From Moringa oleifera (taxonomy: Eukaryota > Streptophyta > Magnoliopsida > Brassicales > Moringaceae), in assembly GCA_021397835.1 (NCBI GenBank), contig JAJFZO010000230.1:5264001-5328000 (forward strand): 64,000 bases of DNA, written 5' to 3'. This document shows, piece by piece, positions 9,101 to 56,964 of this stretch. Numbering within the stretch: position 1 is the stretch's first letter; every line of letters begins with the position of its first letter. The notes under the pieces were generated by a model. That model searched no databases. It was not told the origin of the DNA and worked only from the letters and a program-made list of their open reading frames with translations. The translations under genes were made by a program, and so were the position numbers.

Positions 9101-9365
9101 ACAGATTACTATTGTGAGCTCTCAGCTACATCATGGTGGATAACCCATTGGCAGAAGAAAAAAAAAAAAAAAAAGAAGGAAAGTATGGTGCATATGATGC
9201 AGGTTTTTATTTATTTTATAATGGCTTTATAATGCATCCTAAAACTTAATCTCTCCATAATTTGAAAATTATTTACTTTATTAGCTCTCTCATGAAAAAT
9301 GAATTTACTTTATAGCCTTTGTCTTTTTGCAGAATTTTTTGTGATTAGGTTCACCTTTCTTGCTG

Positions 9366-11412
9366 ATGTTTCTTGATGCACTAAGAGCTAGCAGACATAT
9401 TTACCAGCCACTAAAAACTCAGATTTTGCCTGTTGTCTCCAATAGTTGTGGTTTTGATTTGGTAACTCTTGGCAATATGAGAGAAATCAAAGTAAAGGCT
9501 GCTTCTGGTTCATGTACTGTGGTCGATGGAATATCTCATGATCTGCATTCTGGATCAATAAGTGAGGATCAGAGGTGCTCCTCCCCAAGTGTAAAATACA
9601 CCCCTGAAATTGAAAAGAAGTATGTTCATCATGTTTATGATGCTATAGCTCCTCATTTCAGCTCCACCAGGTTTTCTAAGTGGCCAAAAGTTGCCAAGTT
9701 TCTAAATTCATTACCTTCAGGTTCTCTTATCTTGGATGCAGGGTGTGGAAATGGGAAGTACTTGGGTTTAAATCCTGATTGCTTTTTTATAGGTTGTGAT
9801 ATAAGTGCTCCCCTTATCAAGATCTGTGCAGAAAGAGGGTACGAAGTTTTGGTTGCAGATGCCGTTAATCTTCCTTACAGAACTAATTTTGGAGATGCAG
9901 CTATCTCCATAGCAGTGTTGCATCACCTAAGTACAGAGAATAGAAGGAAGAAAGCACTTGAAGAATTAGTCCGAGTAGTCAAAAAAGGTGGCCTAGTTCT
10001 AATAACAGTTTGGGCTGTAGAGCAGGAGGATAAGTCATTAGTTACCAAATGGACTCCACTTAACCAAAAGTATGTAGAAGAATGGATTGGACCAGGCAGC
10101 CCTCGTGTTCGCAGCTCTTCATCTGTCACCCTGGAGAGTATCCCAGAACACGAGGAAAATAGTCTGGGGCAGAACGTAAAAGGTTCCGAGAAAAATATAA
10201 CTCAGAAGTTGCAAGAATCAGTGTCTTTAAATCCTCAAAGTCAAGATGAGTTGTTAATGCCCATTGATGAACACACTATGAAGAATCAGGAATATTTTGT
10301 TCCTTGGCACTTGCCTTACCACCGGGCTGAAGTCAGTGGTGCTTCTGCCTGTGCTCTTGCAAATGGCCTTGCAAAGAAAGATGATAAAAAGGGTGCAGTA
10401 GTATACAACAGATACTATCATGTATTCAGTGAAGGTGAACTTGAAAGGTAAGCTGATCAATATTTAATTTATTACTTTCCTGTGATTGTCTGAGATGGGT
10501 ATTAAGTATTAATGATTTCTCTTGTTCTTCATTTGTGGTACTTAAAAATGAAAAAGAAAACGGTGGATTTGTAGAAATAACTGTTACAGCAATGACATAG
10601 TTATGAGGAAAGGTTTTTGATATGCTAGTCACAATGACTGGGAAAAACTGTCGATGATATTGGGCATGGACATCTAATACAGAGAATTGTCTTGAACAAG
10701 TCATACAAACTAAATAACTAGAAGTGGGAATACATCCTAGGGATATGAAAAACAGAAGTTTCTACCGTGCAGAAACAGGGAAGATACTGTTTATGGGCAG
10801 TTAAAGACTGGGACTTCATTTTTGAACTAATGATCTGTGTCTACTGGTCATCGATTTTTCCCGATCTTTCTTTTTGGTCTCTCTTAATAGGAGACTGAGT
10901 TGCATACTGCAGAATTTGGTAATGAGACCGCAAATTTATGCTTGTGCGGCATTCTTTAATATGGTACGAATGTTTTGTTGTTTAAGCTGAGTTGGTTTTA
11001 TGACACTGGAAAATCCACCTGAACCAGCTAAAGTGCCTCAATGGATCAGAAGAGGCCACATCAGAGATTAGTTTTTGTTTTTAGATAGTTTGACTGAGGA
11101 ACTAATTTTCACACTGTTATCCGTACCAGACTATGTTATATATGTGGAATTAGAGAAGGCCTTCCACTATTTTCATCTTGAGCGTAACTCTGAGATCTGT
11201 GAATGGACTGGTCGTAAATCCGTTGATAAAGCAATATGCAGAATATAACATGTTTCTCTCTCCACTTAACATTATTATCATTAATTTTCCCTTGTGATGC
11301 CCATGCTTCTCATAATTTGTGCAGGTTAGTATCTGAAATGGACAATGCAGTAGTCGTTGATCGGTTTTATGATAAATCAAATTGGTGTATTATTCTCAAG
11401 AAAACATCATAA
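9366..11412 (+). CDS. TRM9: TRM9-type tRNA (carboxymethyluridine34-5-O)-methyltransferase, two coding exons
   Basis: SAM-dependent methyltransferase. TRM9 enzymes, with TRM112, make mcm5U at the wobble position of certain tRNAs in the cytoplasm. The coding exons are 9366 (or 9477)-10447 and 11325-11412, joined through a split Arg codon (AG|G). The protein is 389 aa from the ATG at 9366 or 352 aa from the ATG at 9477; the second begins MREIKVK, as I recall for the Arabidopsis homologue, and is the better start. Visible motifs are EKKYVHHVYDAIAPHFSSTR, the SAM motif ILDAGCGNGKYLG, FIGCDIS, VADAVNLPYR, IAVLHHLST and the family C-terminal signature FVPWHLPYHR followed by YNRYYHVFSEGELERL. The spacer between EEWIGPG and FVPWHL is Ser/Gln-rich and longer than in yeast Trm9. 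The alternative identity, the ALKBH8 methyltransferase domain, is unlikely because no oxygenase or RRM domain is present. Confidence 0.9.
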
Positions 11413-14400: not shown

Positions 14401-15252
14401 CACAAAAGGAATTTAGGCCTTAACTCGACCGACATCTGGATGGTCAATTATTAACATTAGATGAGGCTCAACAGCACCATTGACATTTGGAATGCCAATT
14501 GTTAACATTAGATGATGACACAAACACAATTCAATTCAGACAAGTGATACTCCCTTAAACCAAATTTAGCCGCTCATAAAAGAAAATTGGAACAAATTAC
14601 ATCCAGCCAAGCAATTGAGGGGTTTAAACATCAAATCTCCTAAAATTAGAAGTAATAATAATTAATATAACAAAAATTAAATAATCACAAAACATTTGAT
14701 TCGTAGTAGTTTATTTTAGAGTTCATTTATCTTGCAATTGTGTCCAAAAAAAAAATTATGTTATGAAAATAAATTATAGAAAACATAACTTACTTTATCC
14801 TCAACTATTTTTGTAGTGCCTTTTATATAATGAAGCTTAATACTCGCATGTAGAAACTTCAAAATACCTTTTTCTGTGTAAATTGATGTGCACAGATAAT
14901 TGACAGGCATGACCCATTTTAAGTTTTGCTTGGCTATTAGGTATTCTCGTGTTTTCTTTTAGTGTGCAAAAGCAACAGCTGAAACTTGAACATTGAAGAT
15001 CAAATGGACCTACATATGGTTCTTGGTGGCAAGAAAACTATCTAACATTAATGCCGTATTATTGCAGCAAGTTGGGCTGTGTTTCTTCGCCAGGCAATAC
15101 CCAACTGCCAGTTCAGAGAAAGCAATATTGGGGGGACAAGCAGACATTACTCAATCTGGCCAATATAACGATCTACATTTAACTCACCCTTTGTATATAT
15201 CTAAGTTATTTGTTTCCTCAACTGCTACAATAACGAGATACAAAGATTGAAG
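11413..15252. other. Intergenic: 3'UTR, A/T-rich block and an LTR-like repeat
   Basis: The TRM9 3'UTR probably extends to about 11850. Bases 11850-12650 have mixed composition without coding signal. Bases 12650-14280 are A/T-rich low complexity, interrupted by a normal-composition island at about 13190-13450. Two copies of a 21-base motif (14444-14464, 14495-14515) lie about 51 bp apart. An LTR-like repeat follows at about 14600-14925. The last 300 bases should carry the GPAT promoter and leader. Confidence 0.5.
14600..14925 (+). mobile_element. Degenerate LTR-like repeat, copy 1
   Basis: This stretch aligns by eye with 26795-27130, in the same order and orientation. Shared blocks are a CTAAAA..AGAAG/AAAGCAATAATAA tract, AATCA(T/C)..ACA..ATTTGAT/ATTTATAGT followed by a GAGTT(C/A) block, a TATATAATGAAGC/TGTATAATGTAAAA tract, GCATGTAGAAA/GCATATGTAGAAA and TGTAAATTG with GCACA. 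The layout resembles the LTR of a Copia-type element. No internal retroelement genes or clear target-site duplication were found, so it is called a remnant. Confidence 0.5.
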
Positions 15253-16917
15253 ATGGCCGGAAAGTTGTTTCCTCTAAAAGCTTTGACTTTCTTGTCCAAA
15301 ATCCTATTGAGAGGATCAGAAAGCTCACCCTCTGTTCACTTTAACACAAGCAATAATAGCAACTATCAGAGTTGGTTCAAAGGTTTCAAGAGATACATGT
15401 CTCTTGTTCATGAATCACGAGGGTTTTCAGATGAGACAGTTCTGGTTTTCAACGTGGAGAGTGCGTTGCTGAGATCGTGTTCTCGGTTTCCTTACTTCAT
15501 GCTGGTGGCATTTGAAGCTGGAGGGCTATTCAGAGCTCTTGTTTTGCTTCTCCTTCATCCTTTTCTCTGCTTGGTCAGTGAACAGCAGGGGTTGAAGATT
15601 ATGGTTTTTGTATGCTTTTTAGGGTTAAAGAAGGAGACGTTCAGGATAGGAAGCTCTGTGTTGCATAAGTTTTTCCTCGAAGATGTCGGGCGTGAAGGAT
15701 TTGATGCAGTGATGAGTTGTGGGAGAAGGGTTGCAGTGACTGACCTGCCAAGAGTCATGGTTGAAGGGTTCTTGAAGGATTACATAGGAGTTGAGGCTGT
15801 CATCGGGAGAGACTTAAAGGTGGTTCATGGGTACTTCGTGGGTCTAATGGATAGAAGAGAGACAGTAACTGAGCTTCTGGGTGACCTGAAAATGAGGTCT
15901 CATGCCATCGGATTAGGCTGCTTGAGCAAGTCCCTGGACCGGCAAGTCTTCAAACATTGCGAGGTTTGCAATCTATACAATGCTACTTAGTAATAAGATT
16001 AATTTCCTCTGTAGTAATGGGTTTGGCAATTGCAACAGGAGGTTTACTTGGTGACTGAAGCAGAGAAGAGGAACTGGCAAGTTCTTCCAAGGAAGAGATA
16101 CCTGAAACCGTTGATCTTTCATGACGGAAGACTGGCTTTTAGGCCGACTTTTGTTGCCACCTTCCTCATGTTCATGTGGTTTCCATTAGGGTTCTTGCTC
16201 TGCTTTGTCAGAGTAACTCTGGCTGTGTTACTACCTTACAGGGCGTTTGTACCCATATTGGCCATGAGCGGAATTGCAACAACGATTTCAAAATCCAGGG
16301 AGGACTTAACTGCTCTGGCCAATAATGAAGAGAAAGAGCGAAGGAGGATACTGTATGTGTGCAACCACAGAACTCTGCTTGACCCAGTTCACATTTCGGT
16401 GGTTCTCATGAAACCTATTGCTGCTGTCACCTACAGCTTAAGCAGGTTCAACGAGGTGATTTCTCCCATAAAAACTGTCAGGCTGACCAGAGAGAGGGAG
16501 AAAGATAGAAGAACAATGGAAAAAATGTTGAAGCAAAGTGACCTGGTAGTTTGCCCAGAAGGAACCACTTGCAGAGAACCCTATCTGCTGAGGTTCAGCC
16601 CGCTATTTGCAGAGATGAGTGAAGATATTGTTCCTGTAGCTATTCAAACAGAGGTGAGTATGTTCTATGGATCCACAGCTAGTGGATTTAAATGCTTAGA
16701 TTCTGCATTTCATATGTTGAATCCATATCCTACATACTCTGTCAAGATTCTTGGCAAGTTGACCAGCACACAGACATGTAAATCTGGAGGGAAATCAAGT
16801 TATGAAGTGGCGAATCAAGTGCAGAGAGAGATTGCAAATGCTTTAGGGTACGAGTGCACCAATCTTACCAGGAAGGATAAGTACATGATATTGGCTGGTA
16901 ATAACGGAATAATATAA
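15253..16917 (+). CDS. Glycerol-3-phosphate sn-2-type acyltransferase, GPAT2/GPAT3-like
   Basis: Land-plant-type, membrane-bound glycerol-3-phosphate acyltransferase, the family that supplies acylglycerols for cutin, suberin and related lipids at the ER. The exons are 15253-15963 and 16039-16917, in phase 0, with a 75-bp intron. The protein is 529 aa, normal for the family. The N-terminal half is the HAD-like domain. Its first motif reads VFNVESALL, lacking the nucleophilic Asp of DxDxT, so phosphatase activity is not expected. Hydrophobic segments lie near residues 85-125 and 275-320. The acyltransferase motifs are intact: NHRTLLDP (346-353), YSLSRF, VRLTRER, VCPEGTTCREPYLLRFSPLF (about 408-427) and the family tail TRKDKYMILAGNNG. 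Sequence choices (CNHRTLLDP, TASGFKCLD) fit GPAT2/3 better than GPAT4/6/8. The substrate and acyl chain preference cannot be read from sequence. Confidence 0.92.
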
Positions 16918-40273: not shown

Positions 40274-41543
40274 CTAGAATAGAGCTGAACTGGTTCGCCG
40301 GAGCTGGTATTTGGATCCTGGAATATCCACTGATAACATCATTTCCACTTCCTGCAAAAGTAGAAACAAAACCATCAAGTCTTGACACCTTCTATGCAAG
40401 CAAATTAATCGGTAAACTCTATCAAAAGCAGTAAGCAGACCGTATTGTCATTCTTAGCAATCAAAACTAAGAACAATCTTATTGAATTTCTTGCATTAAA
40501 TATTCATTTACTAGGTTTTAGTGTATACTGATGAGAGAATGTAGTTGAAATGAAAGATAGGTTACTGCCTTACCTTTTGCTTCTTGAGCCAGCTATTTGT
40601 CTTCCTCAAGTGAAACACTTCGTGCTCCAACTGACTCGTATAAGCCTATAATCATCAAACAAACATGCTCAATTAACTTCTCAACCTGAAGTCAATTCAA
40701 ATAAATGATGTAAGCCGTCCTCTCAATAATAAGCTCTGATACCAACTTGTTTCCTTGCTCTAGATCTAGCAGCCGATTCACGGTTCTTGATCATCCTCTT
40801 CTGTCTCCTCTCAATAGTCCTCTCCATCATCTCATCTGAATACCCCCGCTTTCTCTCAGAACCAGCTCCCTGATGAGACTCTGATGGGGTTCCTGACATT
40901 CCCTGCAATGGCATCGCCATACCCATCTGGTTCTCCGATTCACCACAATCCACAACTGGGTTTTCATAAACAGAATCACTAACATGAAAGCTTGAATCCT
41001 GCACCATCATCTGCCGTTGCTCAACCACAGGCATTTGCAGCTGCAACCAGCCTGCCTGCGGCGACATCACGACCATTGGCTCCACTGCCATAAGCTGTTG
41101 AGGATCAAGAATGGTTGTTTGATTCCCTGTGTTGATGACGCCTGCACGGACTAAAAAATCGTCCAGTGTAGTCTCTCCCAGGTGTTGAACTGAGCGATCC
41201 TCTACTCCATTTCCATGGCCATCTGCAGGCTCTTGACGAGCAATTTCCCTCCAGACCTCATCCACCGTTTTCTTACTCAGTATTCCATTGGAATTCAGAT
41301 TCCCTAGAAAGAATGGACGGGACGATGAAGATGACGAAGGGTTCTGCAGTAGTAGACATTCTTCCACAGATATTACATTTTAAGCAACTCATCCAAATTC
41401 ATAGCATTCAAAGGCTTACCTACAGTCCCAAGCTGGCTCCGCACTTCATCAAGGTTGAGATTGTACAGAGAACCTTGCGTAGCAAGAGGCGAGAATTGTT
41501 GCCCCTGAGCCCTATTTGGAGATACCACAGTTCTATCGTCCAT
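40274..41543 (-). CDS. ABI5-like group A bZIP factor (AREB3/DPBF/EEL type) with a one-base frameshift
   Basis: ABA-pathway bZIP that binds ABRE (ACGTG) sites. The exons are 40747-41543, 40574-40645 and 40274-40351. The last two are exact codon multiples, but the first is 797 bp, one base short. Translation from the ATG gives GSLYNLNLDEVRSQLG and MNLDELLK, then stops at once. The next frame resumes with VISVEECLLLQ, GILSKKTVDEVWREI, TLDDFLVRAGV and the basic region RRQKRMIKNRESAARSRARK. The break lies at about 41376-41385 at a run of four A on the coding strand, where five would keep frame. Exon 2 adds the zipper AYTSQLEHEVFHLRKTNSWL and exon 3 ends in the 14-3-3-type motif YQLRRTSSALF. An intact version would be about 315 aa. 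As read, only a 57-residue peptide is made from the first ATG. It could be an assembly homopolymer error or a real null allele. Expression and target genes are unknown. Confidence 0.9.
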
Positions 41544-51480: not shown

Positions 51481-52349
51481 TTCTTTTCTTTTCTTTTTCT
51501 TTGCTATTTTGTTTATCTACGTCAAGTATTTAGTGTAAACTTGCTATGGTGTTATTGGATTTCTTTGGTTCTTCTTGTTTTTGGTTTAGTGAAGTGGGTG
51601 GTGTTGACTGCTGATTAGCGGAAATCGAGGACTTAAGAGTGTTGAACTGAGGTTTCCTTGGATTTGACAGAGCTCATAGAGTTTTGGGGTTTGCTGTTAA
51701 TCAACGAAGGTTAGTCTCTTAGTTCCCAATTTCTTAGGAAACTGAACTCGTCTTCAGCTCTGTTTTTGGTTGCTGGAAGAGATGTTGCCACCGAATTTTA
51801 TTGAATTTCAGTACTCTTCTCTTTTCTCCTTCATTTGAACAATTTTCTAGGCTACCGGGTTAAACTTTCTTTTTCTTTTTTTGGTTTGGGTAACAAAACG
51901 TAGAGGCTTATAGGATTCAATTTGAGCTCCTGCTCCTTTCCCAAAACGCTTTAAGTTTTGTTCATCTATTTGTTTTGGTATTATCTCACGAAAGTTCTTA
52001 TCTGGTTCATGCAGTTCTTCTGGCTAATTAGGAACTTGTTTTTTCCTTTTTTTTTTTTTTTTAAGTGAAGGTGTAATTGTAGTGCCAATATTGGATCTAG
52101 TGAAGCATGCCTTAAAAGGTGAGTAGATTCTGGTGAATAGCTCTTATATTTATAGCAGGAAGGCAATCTCTTTTCGGAGATAGTTGTCTTAATAGTTGGG
52201 TTCATTCATCCATTATTCAGTAATACCATGTCCAATCTTTATTCTGCTTTGTGATTTCCAATAATTACATGGACGAAGCTATTCGTCTGTGAACTTCTGA
52301 AATATTTTTGCTTTAGCTTTATGTGATTTGTGACCTTGTGCTAATGCTT

Positions 52350-52737
52350 TCTTGCGGTGCTGAAATTGAGCAATAAATTTGATCTATATATGTTTTATTG
52401 ACAGAGTATGAGCTCTCCTTCAACTCAACTTGCCACCTACAGAAGGATGGGAATTTATGAGCCATTTCAAACAATAAGCACATGGACAAGCAACTTCCAG
52501 ATTGACGATAGCCCCAAAACAGGTTCATCCACCATTCTGCAGGGGGATGCTAGGCTAGACAACAAGGTGAAGATGCACGAAGTTCTCTTTTCTTGTTTTC
52601 TGGTTGCTAGAATGTTGCTAACTATTCTGATTTTAAGTTTTACAGTCTGGATATGTGTCTCCAAACCCAGCAGAAACTTCCAGAAATGATCAAGAGAAAA
52701 GTAGAGCAAGTGATAAGGTGATGAAATTCCTCCATCT
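52350..52737 (+). repeat. Tandem exon-pair duplication, copy 1 (exons A and B)
   Basis: This unit holds the N-terminal coding exon A (52408-52566), a short intron, exon B (52646-52717) and flanking intron ends. Copy 2 lies immediately downstream. Homology includes the upstream intron end (GCTGA...ATAAATTT), both exons, the internal intron start (GTGAAG/GTGAAA) and a shared GATAAGGTGATGAAATTCCT at the end of exon B. Confidence 0.9.
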
Positions 52738-55700
52738 CTTACCATGGTCAAATGCTGGGGCTTAGTTTTTACGTGATTTTGATAATTGCGTTCTTACAGC
52801 GCTGAGTTGATAAATTTAACCTTAATTTGTTACATAAACTGCCAGGGTATGAACAGTCCTTCAACTCAACTAGCCACCTTAAGAAAGATGGGAATTTACG
52901 AGCCATTCCAACAGATAAGTACATGGACGAACAGCTTCAACAATGATGATAGGATGGACAACAAGGTGAAAGTGCATGAAGTTTTCATTTCTTGGTCACT
53001 GGATGTTTCAATTATCTTCTGATTGCTGGACTATAGTTGATTTTTTTGATTTAAATTCTACAGTCTGAATATGTCTCTCCTGAGCCGACAGAACCTTCCA
53101 GAAGTGATCAAGAAGCACACAGACCAAGTGATAAGGTGATGAAATTCCTAGTTCTCTCTGTGTGTGTGTGGGTGGTCTTAGGTGTCTCTCTTGCTTGCTC
53201 ATCTGGACGCCTAGAGATTATACTGTTCTTGAATATCCTAATGATTTCATTTCCAATTGCTCCCGGAGAAAATTATCGAACTGAATGAAAGATTGCTCCT
53301 ACTTCTAGCTTAACTATCTAAATCTTGAATGTGAGAAAGAAGTGAGGAAACCTCTTTTCCACTTCATTTCTCTCTCATTCCAGTCATTGCTTTTGTTTCT
53401 GTTACTTCAACAATAGCTGCTTCAGCTTCAACCACTGGAATCTTCGATATTTCTTTTCATTTCTCATCAAATGAGTGACATCTTCTTCTGAAAATCCTGG
53501 TTATTCTTATCATGATAACAGGGAATCTCATTGCTATTACTCAAATAGGCATGAAATGTATTCTTACATGCTTATCTCTAGGTCAAATCGTATGTGTAAT
53601 TATTGGAATAACGGATACTCAAGGGGATAAATGAGCTTGATAACTTCTATGTTCTTCTGTATCTCCATGAATCTAGGAATTTTTATTGGCTTTGTATCAT
53701 TTGGTAAACTTCTTCATTTTCTATATCTTTTCTTAGTATGCTTAATATCTATTTTACACCTTCTATGCAAAAATCTTGAAGTTTCGTAATGTCTTCTGAC
53801 TCTTATTTAATGATGTATGTGTATTGGACTTCTTCAGACAATTATAGATTCTGGGAGGCAATTTTAATTCGTCAATAAAAATATATTGAAATACTATTTC
53901 TTTTTTCTTTTCTTAGTTCAGCCAATTTATCATGAAAAGGACAAAAGGGTAACTTGTGTTGATTGTTCTCTCATTAGAACTTTTCTTTTTCCGCTTGTGG
54001 AAAAAAAATTACAGTCATCAAATTTTGGGAGGCTTCATGAAGTGTTTCTTTAGGAGTTAAACTTCCATTCGTCCGTCTTTCTAGAAAAAGTATCTCTTGC
54101 ATTTCCAGTCCCATAAGGTGGGTGCTATGATTCGCATTTTGACCATTTCTTGTCACAGAAGACTTCTGTTATCACCAACCTTGGTGTGTGAGTTTACTGG
54201 ATTTTCATGCTTAGCAAAGTTTGTTACCTTAATGATGTTCATTATCTATTTCAACAGATCTTTTGCACTATCTGATGAATTGCTTGTGGAACTGTTTTGT
54301 TGCTTTGCCCCAAATATATTAGCTCATGCAGTCTTGAGTCTACTTATTAATGCACCTTAGTTTGTAAGCTATGGTTTCTGTTATGTTTTGTCATTTTCTA
54401 TTTTACATTTTTTCGATTTCAGCAACAGGTTATAAGAATACAATTCAATGATAAGGTTGCCATCTTTTTTATGTTTTCAGTAATCATAAGTTAGATGAGT
54501 AAGGCATTTTTTCTGTTTGAGGGGTCATAGAACTTTTCTTCGACAACCTATCTGTTCCCCTTCTGCTGAAAATACATTTGTCACTATTATTGGGTGCTAC
54601 CATTCTCACTGATCTACAAATTGAGCTTTGATTTACATTGTTTATATATATGGGTACAGGTACAGAGACGTTTGGCTCAAAACCGTGAAGCTGCTCGCAA
54701 AAGTCGTTTGCGGAAGAAGGTAAAAAGGATTTCTGTACAAGCTTATGATAATGGAAGAAACGAGACACTCAGGATATATTAATCTAATGGTATGTTGGTT
54801 GCCTTTTACAGGCATATGTCCAACAATTAGAAGCAAGCCGTTTGAAACTGGCACAGTTGGAGCAGGAGCTTGAGAGAGCCAGACAACAGGTTAGGTGAAA
54901 CTTATAAGTTTCTTTTTTCTTTTGTTTTTTCCATCTTTTATGAAAATTGAGATCCTTATGGAATGTGTATCAGAACATAGCATATTTCTAATGGATCGAT
55001 TAATTCCTTGTTGCAGGGTTTATACATAAGCAGTACATCAGATACTAGTTATTTAGGACTCTCTGCCACTGTGAACTCAGGTTGGTCATTTCATGATGAT
55101 CTGATATGCCTGCTGGATAAGACAAGGAAAATAGCGTTATTATAGAAATTTCTATAAAAAACGAGGATAGTTCCTTTTTCTTTCCTTGTCCAGATATGGT
55201 GATGGACGAGGAGTAGCTGTAAATTTTTGAGTGCTGGACGCCCATGTTTTTAAAGTCTCTCCCTTTTCTTCCTTTTTGTTTCCTTTTCACTTGTCCTTTT
55301 AGATATCTTTCCAAGGATTTCTTGATCCCTTAGATATACGACGGATCTCCTTGGATAATTCCTTCTTATTGTATCAAGGTTTCCAATCGAAAGTCTAGTT
55401 TCATTACTTTTTAAGTTAAATTTCTTGTGCTTGCATCTTGTATCCTCTTGAAACTTGTCCTTAAATGTGAATTTTGCAGGCATTGCTGCATTCGAGATGG
55501 AATATGCACACTGGGTTGAGGAGCAACATAGGCAAATTTCTGAACTTAGAAATGCATTGCAGACTCACATCACCGATATTGAGCTCCGTATACTAGTAGA
55601 AAATGGTTTGAACCACTATAGCAATCTTTTTCGCATGAAAGCAGATGCTGCCAAAGCCGATGTCTTCTATTTGATTTCTGGCATGTGGAAAACATCAACT

Positions 55701-56964
55701 GAACGGTTTTTCCAATGGATTGGAGGATTCCGCCCGTCAGAGCTTTTAAATGTAATGATTGTTTCTACTTATTGCTTGGAAGTTGCTTATCTATCTGCTA
55801 TCATATAGCCAGCTATAAGAACAAGATTGCTTCATGCTTATTGGTTGAACCATAAAGATCTAGACAAACTTGGAAAATTCGTGTCCACCTCCTTGTTAGA
55901 ATTGTGAGGATCCGCTGCATACACAAATTCCTTCTGTCTCAAATTGCTGAACCTCAATTCCGTTGCCTTTTCATAGCTGATTCTTCATACTTTATATGAT
56001 GGACCACGATATTGCATCTTGAAATGGTATGTTAAATTAGATTGACATCTTGATATTGCATTGAATATGTCCTTCCTCTGATGCTATAAAAGCTGCTTCC
56101 TAGCAAGACTGATAGATAATGGACCACGAGACACGTTAGAAAAGTTTGACTCCATTACATCATGATCGAAATGCTTCTGCACTTCAAGAATTATGTATGA
56201 AATTTTGTTTACACAGGTCGTCATGCCAACTCTTGAGCCCCTGACTGATCAACAAATCGTGGATATCTGTAACCTCAGACAATCTTCTCAGCAAGCAGAA
56301 GATGCTCTCTCCCAAGGAGTTGATAAACTCCAGCAAAATTTGGCCCAGAGTATAGCACCTGATCCTGTTGGTCCAGGAGATTACAGGTCTCAGATGGCTG
56401 CAGCCATGGAGAAATTAGAAGCACTGGAGGGCTTCGTCAACCAGGTAAGCTATCACTTCTGACCACTAGTAGCAGTTCACTGCAAGCGTTCTGAAAACTT
56501 TATTCGTCATGAATTGCTTTCCTCTGTAGCACAATTAAGCTCTAGTTTGACTAAGAGCAAAAAGAATTGGATCTTGCAATCCATGTGTTCTGTTGAAAAA
56601 AAATATATATATCTAGACCTGGTCAATGGGAAATAAGGCTTGAGCTCTACAAATAACCTGAATCTTACAATTTCTGCCCTGAAATTTTCTGAACTTCCGC
56701 CGTATTCTTTGCTAGCATGACCAATAAGAGCACTGGCCTGGTTTATTGTAAAAGAGTCAATTACCCGGTTTGTCAATTTTTTTTACCACAGTCTATTTCA
56801 TTCTGCAACAGGCAGATCATCTTCGGCAACAAACTCTGCAGCAAATGTCACGGGTCCTAACAATCCGTCAAGCAGCTCGAGGCTTGCTTGCTTTGGGAGA
56901 GTACTTTCACCGTCTCCGTGCTCTTAGTTCCCTCTGGGCTGCTCGTCCTCGTGAACCTGCTTAA
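52408..56964 (+). CDS. TGA7/TGA3-type bZIP transcription factor with duplicated N-terminal exons
   Basis: TGA factors bind TGACG elements in the nucleus and recruit NPR1-type coactivators in salicylate defence. The exons are 52408-52566 (A), 52646-52717 (B), 52846-52965 (A'), 53064-53135 (B'), 54660-54719, 54812-54889, 55017-55080, 55480-55751, 56217-56444 and 56812-56964. All ten keep frame and give 425 aa. Leaving out either A-B or A'-B' gives about 361 or 348 aa; Arabidopsis TGA7 is about 368 aa. The bZIP basic region is [18 protein letters not shown] with zipper [20 protein letters not shown]. The DOG1/seed-maturation-type C-terminal domain follows ([47 protein letters not shown]) and the end reads [10 protein letters not shown]. 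The N terminus MGIYEPFQ and C-terminal wording favour clade III (TGA3/7). [11 protein letters not shown] keeps one of the two TGA1 redox cysteines and has Ser at the other. A 5'UTR intron of about 51710-52404 is inferred. Confidence 0.9.
52793..53155 (+). repeat. Tandem exon-pair duplication, copy 2 (exons A' and B')
   Basis: The unit contains exon A' (52846-52965) and exon B' (53064-53135). Compared with copy 1, about 29 of 39 residues of A' and 16 of 24 of B' are identical. A' lacks an internal stretch of about 14 codons matching [14 protein letters not shown] in exon A. Splice sites and phase 0 are preserved at every junction. Confidence 0.9.
53136..54659 (+). other. Long intron of the TGA gene
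   Basis: An intron of 1524 bp lies between exon B' and the basic-region exon. It contains a short TG run near 53156-53170 and otherwise nothing recognisable. No additional copy of the duplicated exon pair was found in it. Confidence 0.65.

What the first reader, a model, noticed from the sequence alone, without database searches (positions are those of the whole stretch)
52350..53155. In-frame tandem duplication of two N-terminal exons in a TGA transcription factor
Exons A (52408-52566) and B (52646-52717), with their introns, are repeated as A' (52846-52965) and B' (53064-53135), about 420-440 bp downstream. All four exons are phase 0 with good GT-AG sites, so three products are possible: A-B-A'-B' (425 aa), A-B only (about 361 aa) or A'-B' only (about 348 aa). 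Exon A keeps a SPxTGSSTILQGDxR-type segment like Arabidopsis TGA7 (from memory), while A' lost it. Mutually exclusive use would give one locus two N termini, the region that varies most among TGA activators and repressors. Both copies lack stops and keep the MGIYEPFQ core, which suggests selection.
Basis: partly seen in the sequence, partly recalled or inferred. Interest (0 to 1): 0.75.

Follow-up and report, generated by a model that had tools for sequence, protein, structure and literature searches.

The report
Doubled N-terminus exons in moringa TGA7
In the drumstick tree, Moringa oleifera, the gene for the transcription factor TGA7 carries two intact, diverged copies of the exon pair that codes for the front end of the protein; both look kept as code, but whether they are used together or as alternatives can only be told from RNA.

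Summary
Exons A-B (52408-52566, 52646-52717) recur as A'-B' (52846-52965, 53064-53135): repeats 81, 81 and 78% identical, all exons phase 0 and open with GT-AG borders, upstream of one bZIP-DOG1 body. The genome is Moringa oleifera var. Bhagya (contig C572 equals the published N50 to the base). It is the only TGA3/7-type gene among 8 DOG1 loci fetched of 15 matches. The TGA1-like paralogue has one A-B pair. Of 131 homologues listed, 126 could be scored for the module and none has it twice. The duplication is old: dS 0.34-0.45 (bootstrap 0.20-0.84), intron distance 0.28, roughly 20-33 My. Frame, splice sites and conserved residues survived, so both copies were probably kept as code, but dN/dS (0.53) is not significantly below 1 (p 0.13). 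A' lost a conserved 14-residue segment; B drifted more than B'. Nothing found supports mutually exclusive use: the 128-nt intron between the pairs looks spliceable. The simplest reading is one 425-aa TGA7 with two N-terminal modules. Alternative N-termini remain open. No RNA evidence was available.

The parts
51546..51614 (+). possible upstream ORF (22 codons plus stop) in the presumed leader exon
   Evidence: transcription start not known
51710..52404 (+). leader intron (donor GAAG|GTTAGT, acceptor TTGACAG|AGT), read by eye; start of the leader exon not determined
   Evidence: sequence
52310..52750 (+). first copy of the duplicated unit (approximate ends): tail of leader intron, exon A, intron, exon B, start of next intron
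   Evidence: alignment; repeats
52408..52566 (+). exon A coding part (53 codons; exon begins at 52405), keeps SPKTGSSTILQGDAR
52646..52717 (+). exon B (24 codons)
52718..52845 (+). 128-nt intron between the two copies; its 3' part derives from the leader intron
52751..53160 (+). second copy of the duplicated unit (approximate ends)
52846..52965 (+). exon A' (40 codons with the leading Gly, own ATG at 52849); lacks 42 nt (14 codons) present in A
53064..53135 (+). exon B' (24 codons), closer to the rosid consensus than B
54660..54719 (+). exon C, basic region of bZIP
54812..54889 (+). exon D, leucine zipper
55017..55080 (+). exon E
55480..55751 (+). exon F, DOG1 domain
56217..56444 (+). exon G
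56812..56964 (+). exon H with stop codon

Best explanation
A segment of about 440 bp holding the last part of the leader intron and exons A and B of the Moringa TGA7 gene was duplicated in tandem, roughly 20-33 My ago. Both exons are phase 0, so the reading frame was kept at once; the UTR triplet before the old start codon became a Gly codon in the second copy. Both pairs were then kept as coding sequence while diverging in a partly complementary way: A keeps the SPxTGSST segment that A' lost by a 42-nt in-frame deletion, while B' keeps consensus residues that B lost. The most likely main mRNA joins leader-A-B-A'-B'-C and makes a 425-aa TGA7 whose N-terminus before the bZIP is 141 instead of 77 residues and carries the GIYEPFQ-ISTW-F module twice. 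Expected effect, inferred from work on other TGAs: altered activation strength, DNA-binding stability or contact with NPR1 and glutaredoxin partners, with an unchanged bZIP and DOG1 body. Shown: duplication, frame, splice borders, rough age, absence from the homologues examined. Inferred: splicing pattern, protein and function.
For: Repeats and exon phases. Intron A-B against A'-B' 77% identical, JC distance 0.28; dS 0.34-0.45 by four methods, bootstrap 0.20-0.84. In the alignment five internal gaps lie in 171 aligned non-coding positions against one, of 42 nt, in 191 exon positions; Poisson chance 0.025, or 0.063 if the 43 positions after B, where homology ends, are counted too. Chance that one neutral copy keeps no stop and four splice dinucleotides: 0.05-0.06 at d 0.20. 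Copies differ at less conserved columns (one-sided p 0.029); of 32 columns conserved in at least 80% of 20 homologues A'B' keeps 29, AB 26. The donors of both copies are AAG|GTGA and the three short introns are 79-128 nt and 38-45% U. The TGA1-like paralogue has the plain A-B-C layout. Roles of TGA N-termini: passages of PMC9360754.
Against: No transcript seen. dN/dS not significantly below 1 (p 0.13); 3.2% of bootstraps at or above 1. At lower distances the chance of surviving intact by drift is larger: 0.10-0.12 at d 0.15, about half the intron distance, and 0.21-0.23 at d 0.10. The A' acceptor has the fewest T among ten acceptors in its last 20 nt (7), though its T+C (11) is ordinary, so it could be skipped. 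The best N-terminal tree puts AB with P0001 and A'B' outside (88/82), which would make the duplication older and P0001 a single-pair product; AB+A'B' is not rejected (p 0.206).
Confidence: 0.5

Rival explanations
1. Alternative N-termini: transcripts carry A-B or A'-B' but seldom both, by skipping A'-B' or by splicing the leader straight to A', giving 361-aa and 347-aa proteins with different front ends.
For: Both pairs have their own ATG and an acceptor descended from the leader-intron acceptor; both give open products. The copies have diverged in a partly complementary way. The A' acceptor is the poorest in T of ten.
Against: The 128-nt intron between the pairs looks spliceable, so nothing sterically forces exclusion. 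No convincing competing RNA pairing: the best inverted pair (21 nt, 86%) flanks the whole array rather than choosing between pairs, and I judge it within chance.
Confidence: 0.25
2. One pair is a relic: A'-B' (or A-B) is rarely spliced in and survives open by chance or recent decay.
For: Exon and intron divergence are similar (exon A 18%, exon B 22%, intron 23%); dN/dS 0.53, p 0.13 against 1; 19 to 29% chance of no stop under drift at d 0.20-0.25 and more at lower d.
Against: Splice sites and frame are also intact (joint chance 0.02-0.06 at d 0.20-0.25); differences avoid conserved columns (p 0.029) and A'B' keeps 29 of 32 conserved columns.
Confidence: 0.24
3. Assembly artefact.
For: The sequence comes from one hybrid assembly (PMC8712769, section 17) and no second assembly could be searched.
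Against: Copies differ at about 20% of sites with their own intron between them, inside an 8.29-Mb contig; assembly errors duplicate near-identical sequence (general knowledge).
Confidence: 0.01

Closest known systems
TGA3/TGA7 clade of group D bZIP factors (TGA7, solved as 8gyz; TGA3 in 7tac)
   Same: bZIP and DOG1 body, N-terminal module MGIYEPFQ-W-F and SPxTGSST segment; locus-tag numbers in Acer, Craigia, Xanthoceras and Jatropha fit the same gene neighbourhood
   Different: two N-terminal exon pairs instead of one; 0 of 126 scorable homologues, of 131 listed, has the module twice
Tandem exon duplication, including mutually exclusive exons as in Dscam (from recall and from search listings)
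   Same: phase-compatible tandem copies of whole exons with introns in one gene
   Different: a pair of exons, one extra copy, N-terminal, in a plant gene; exclusivity not shown and not required by the anatomy
Long N-termini of other TGAs (NtTGA2.1, clades IV and V)
   Same: length of the disordered N-terminus varies and affects DNA binding and activity (passages of PMC9360754)
   Different: here the length comes from exon duplication and the module is repeated

Membership tests
TGA (group D bZIP) factor | bZIP domain followed by DOG1 domain | tested here: met
   PF00170 33.3 bits (cut-off 27.6), PF14144 108.5 bits (cut-off 27); the second bZIP model PF07716 misses its cut-off narrowly (22.2 against 22.3)
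TGA3/TGA7 clade (clade III) | groups with TGA7 proteins apart from TGA1/4 | tested here: met
   tree of 43 rows rooted on Nelumbo TGA1: apart from the TGA1 rows of Vitis, Acer and Durio (100/99), within a set of 24 rosid TGA7-type rows (99/96)
TGA3/TGA7 clade (clade III) | single N-terminal exon pair A-B | tested here: not met
   two pairs; this is the novelty; clade membership rests on the body
Tandem exon duplication | adjacent homologous exons with homologous introns in one gene, frame kept | tested here: met
Mutually exclusive exons | one and only one copy in each mRNA | not testable with these tools
   needs RNA reads
Mutually exclusive exons | spacing or RNA pairing that forbids joint inclusion | tested here: inconclusive
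   intron of 128 nt should allow joint splicing; inverted pairs are not arranged as selectors; no exhaustive search for pairing was made

The most novel reading that the evidence does not exclude
One TGA7 locus makes proteins with two different N-termini by regulated choice between A-B, A'-B' and both, so that a plant with a single detected clade-III TGA obtains by splicing the N-terminal diversity that other plants get from separate genes.
Probability: 0.18. Interest if true: 0.6.

Novelty: new variant of a known kind. Interest (0 to 1): 0.36.

Why it matters
[quoted passage not shown] A natural doubling, apparently kept for millions of years beside an ordinary body, in a genome where I found only one clade-III TGA, is a ready test of what that part does: compare the one-module and two-module proteins in the same assays.

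Tried and rejected
Third copy: a 17-nt, 94% match between leader intron (52261-52277) and A' (D8) did not extend; local alignments of the leader intron, long intron and upstream DNA to both copies fell within resampled sequence. Of the ten comparisons there, the lowest was the reverse complement of the leader intron against copy 1 (11 of 300 resamples as good), which I take as chance. Inverted repeats as selector pairs: the best (21 nt, 86%) flanks the whole array, and by my arithmetic about 0.5 such pairs are expected by chance. Tandem Repeats Finder reported nothing, not surprising for copies this diverged. Duplication before the split from P0001's species: the best tree says so (88/82), the opposite is not rejected; left open. 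Naming the species by protein neighbours failed; it succeeded by plastid-insertion load and contig length. The regular expression for the module also scores 0 on many single-copy proteins, so I replaced it by local alignment: 126 of 131 proteins scored, first module at 40 or more in 124, a second in 0 (best second score 26; a doubled control gave 144 and 128). Not scored: P0027 and P0049 (single N-terminus as printed), P0042 (starts in the DOG1 part), P0124 and P0129 (judged by coverage of 42-56% only; see there). Papers: none holds both TGA7 and exon duplication. Listings (10 of 10; 1 of 1; 3 of 3; 5 of 5; 15 of 37; 10 of 11; 8 of 13) show no title or abstract start about this duplication; apart from PMC9360754 those papers were not opened.

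Full report
Observation. Exons A and B with their introns are repeated in tandem. The tool finds the repeats at 81%, 81% and 78% identity. Exons A, B, A' and B' have the stated borders, are all phase 0, hold no stop and are flanked by GT-AG. With exons C-H (54660-56964) the gene gives 425 aa with both pairs, 361 aa with A-B and 347 aa with A'-B'. The repeated unit also seems to include about 90 bp of the leader intron (61 of 93 aligned positions alike), so A' brought a copy of the leader-intron acceptor with it; the UTR triplet AGT before the old start codon corresponds to a GGT (Gly) codon in A'.

Species. The held genome has 279,523,821 bases in 669 contigs. It has 126 matches to MatK_N, most of those listed interrupted by stops or partial, which points to the massive plastid insertions reported for Moringa oleifera (PMC7573628, abstract). 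The published var. Bhagya assembly has 915 contigs, 281,946,330 bp and an N50 of 4,719,167 bp (PMC8712769, section 17). Contig C572 here is 4,719,167 bases long. I take the window as that assembly, some contigs not being held.

Gene identity. bZIP_1 and DOG1 pass the Pfam cut-offs, bZIP_2 misses its own by 0.1 bit; the solved chains found are TGA3 and TGA7. In a tree of 43 rows from the body the window joins an unnamed protein, P0001 (98/95), within a set of rosid TGA7-type rows and apart from TGA1. Fifteen DOG1 matches lie in the genome. Of the eight fetched (L001-L008), L006 is this gene, L004 is TGA1-like (62% over its DOG1 stretch), five more are 51-58% alike there and L008 is a distant DOG1 protein (28%). 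The seven not fetched have lower DOG1 scores and were not classified, and the protein search of the genome did not complete. So I found one clade-III gene; I have not excluded another. The TGA1-like locus has a single A exon (L010 4330-4488) and a single B exon (to 4669), then the bZIP exon, so A-B-C is taken as the older layout and A'-B' sits in the former B-C intron.

Neighbourhood. A tRNA methyltransferase frame lies at 9360-10451. Its homologues and the TGA7 homologues have close locus-tag numbers in Acer yangbiense (022044/022054), Craigia (28dG0049800/28dG0049100), Xanthoceras (010120/010137) and Jatropha (12011/12018). This fits conserved gene order, so the window gene is probably the TGA7 orthologue in place. 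It rests on tag numbers, not on maps.

Distribution. A search with the 425-aa product gave 4587 matches, of which the best 120 are listed. A search scored on the 141 N-terminal residues alone gave 31 proteins, 11 of them new; each covers 40-58% of the query, about one copy. Local alignment of the module to 126 of these 131 proteins found it once in 124 and twice in none; a doubled control scored 144 and 128. No listed protein is closer than 83%, so no M. oleifera product of this gene was seen and the search says nothing on expression. Unlisted matches and members inside 90% clusters were not seen.

Age. dS between the copies is 0.34-0.45 by four methods for A and B together, bootstrap 0.20-0.84 with 63 codons; the intron A-B copies differ by 0.28. 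With the gamma peak of Moringa paralogues at Ks 1.62 (PMC7573628, section 11) and gamma at 117 My (PMC10820149, passage) this is about 20-33 My, bootstrap range 14-61. The tree of N-termini joins AB with P0001 and leaves A'B' outside (88/82), while AB+A'B' (p 0.206) and A'B'+P0001 (p 0.093) are not rejected. An older duplication, shared with P0001's species, is thus open.

Selection. For: no stop and all splice dinucleotides kept (joint chance for one neutral copy 0.05-0.06 at d 0.20, 0.02-0.04 at d 0.25); one exon gap, of 42 nt, in 191 aligned exon positions against five gaps in 171 aligned non-coding ones (Poisson 0.025; 0.063 if the 43 positions after B are counted); differences lie at less conserved columns (one-sided p 0.029); A'B' keeps 29 and AB 26 of 32 conserved columns. 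Against: omega 0.53 with p 0.13; 3.2% of bootstraps at or above 1; the joint chance rises to 0.10-0.12 at d 0.15 and 0.21-0.23 at d 0.10; exon and intron identities are alike (82, 78 and 77%). Retention of both copies is likely but not proven.

Complementary change. A keeps SPKTGSSTILQGDAR; its counterpart, SPNTGSSTIVQVD or similar, is found in most of the rosid rows aligned. A' lost 14 residues by a 42-nt deletion with a shared TAG at its two ends in copy A (sequence). Of 17 columns where the copies differ, A'B' has the consensus in 8, AB in 3, neither in 6.

Use. The three short introns are 79, 128 and 98 nt and 38-45% U. Donors of both copies read AAG|GTGA; the A' acceptor has 7 T in its last 20 nt, the least of ten, with an ordinary T+C of 11 and a good CAG|G border. 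Nothing found forces a choice between pairs. Joint inclusion is therefore the default, with skipping of A'-B' or a leader-A' splice possible. For function, a review reports that TGA N-termini are disordered, that removing that of NtTGA1A lowered activation, that shortening that of NtTGA2.1 increased DNA-binding stability, that the N-terminal half of AtTGA3 enhances interaction with NPR1 in yeast, and that the N-termini of AtPAN and AtTGA3 strengthen contacts with ROXY1 (PMC9360754, passages). A doubled module could act on any of these; this is inference.

Verdict. Real, old and apparently kept; a new variant of a known kind. It is of moderate interest until RNA shows how the pairs are used.

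Noticed in passing
51546-51614: A 22-codon upstream ORF lies in the presumed leader exon of TGA7; whether it is transcribed or conserved is unknown.
   Followed up: no
G000 contigs C584, C49, C522, C3 and others: 126 MatK_N matches in the genome, most of those listed interrupted by stops or partial: plastid DNA in the nucleus, as reported for Moringa oleifera.
   Followed up: partly
40723-41367 (-): An ABI5/AREB-like bZIP open frame (name by recall) lies about 11 kb upstream of TGA7, so two bZIP genes of different groups are near each other.
   Followed up: no
15247-16917 (+): Two open frames that look like two exons of a glycerol-3-phosphate acyltransferase gene (name by recall).
   Followed up: no
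52256-52276 and 53588-53608: A 21-nt, 86% complementary pair flanks the whole A-B-A'-B' array; probably chance.
   Followed up: partly
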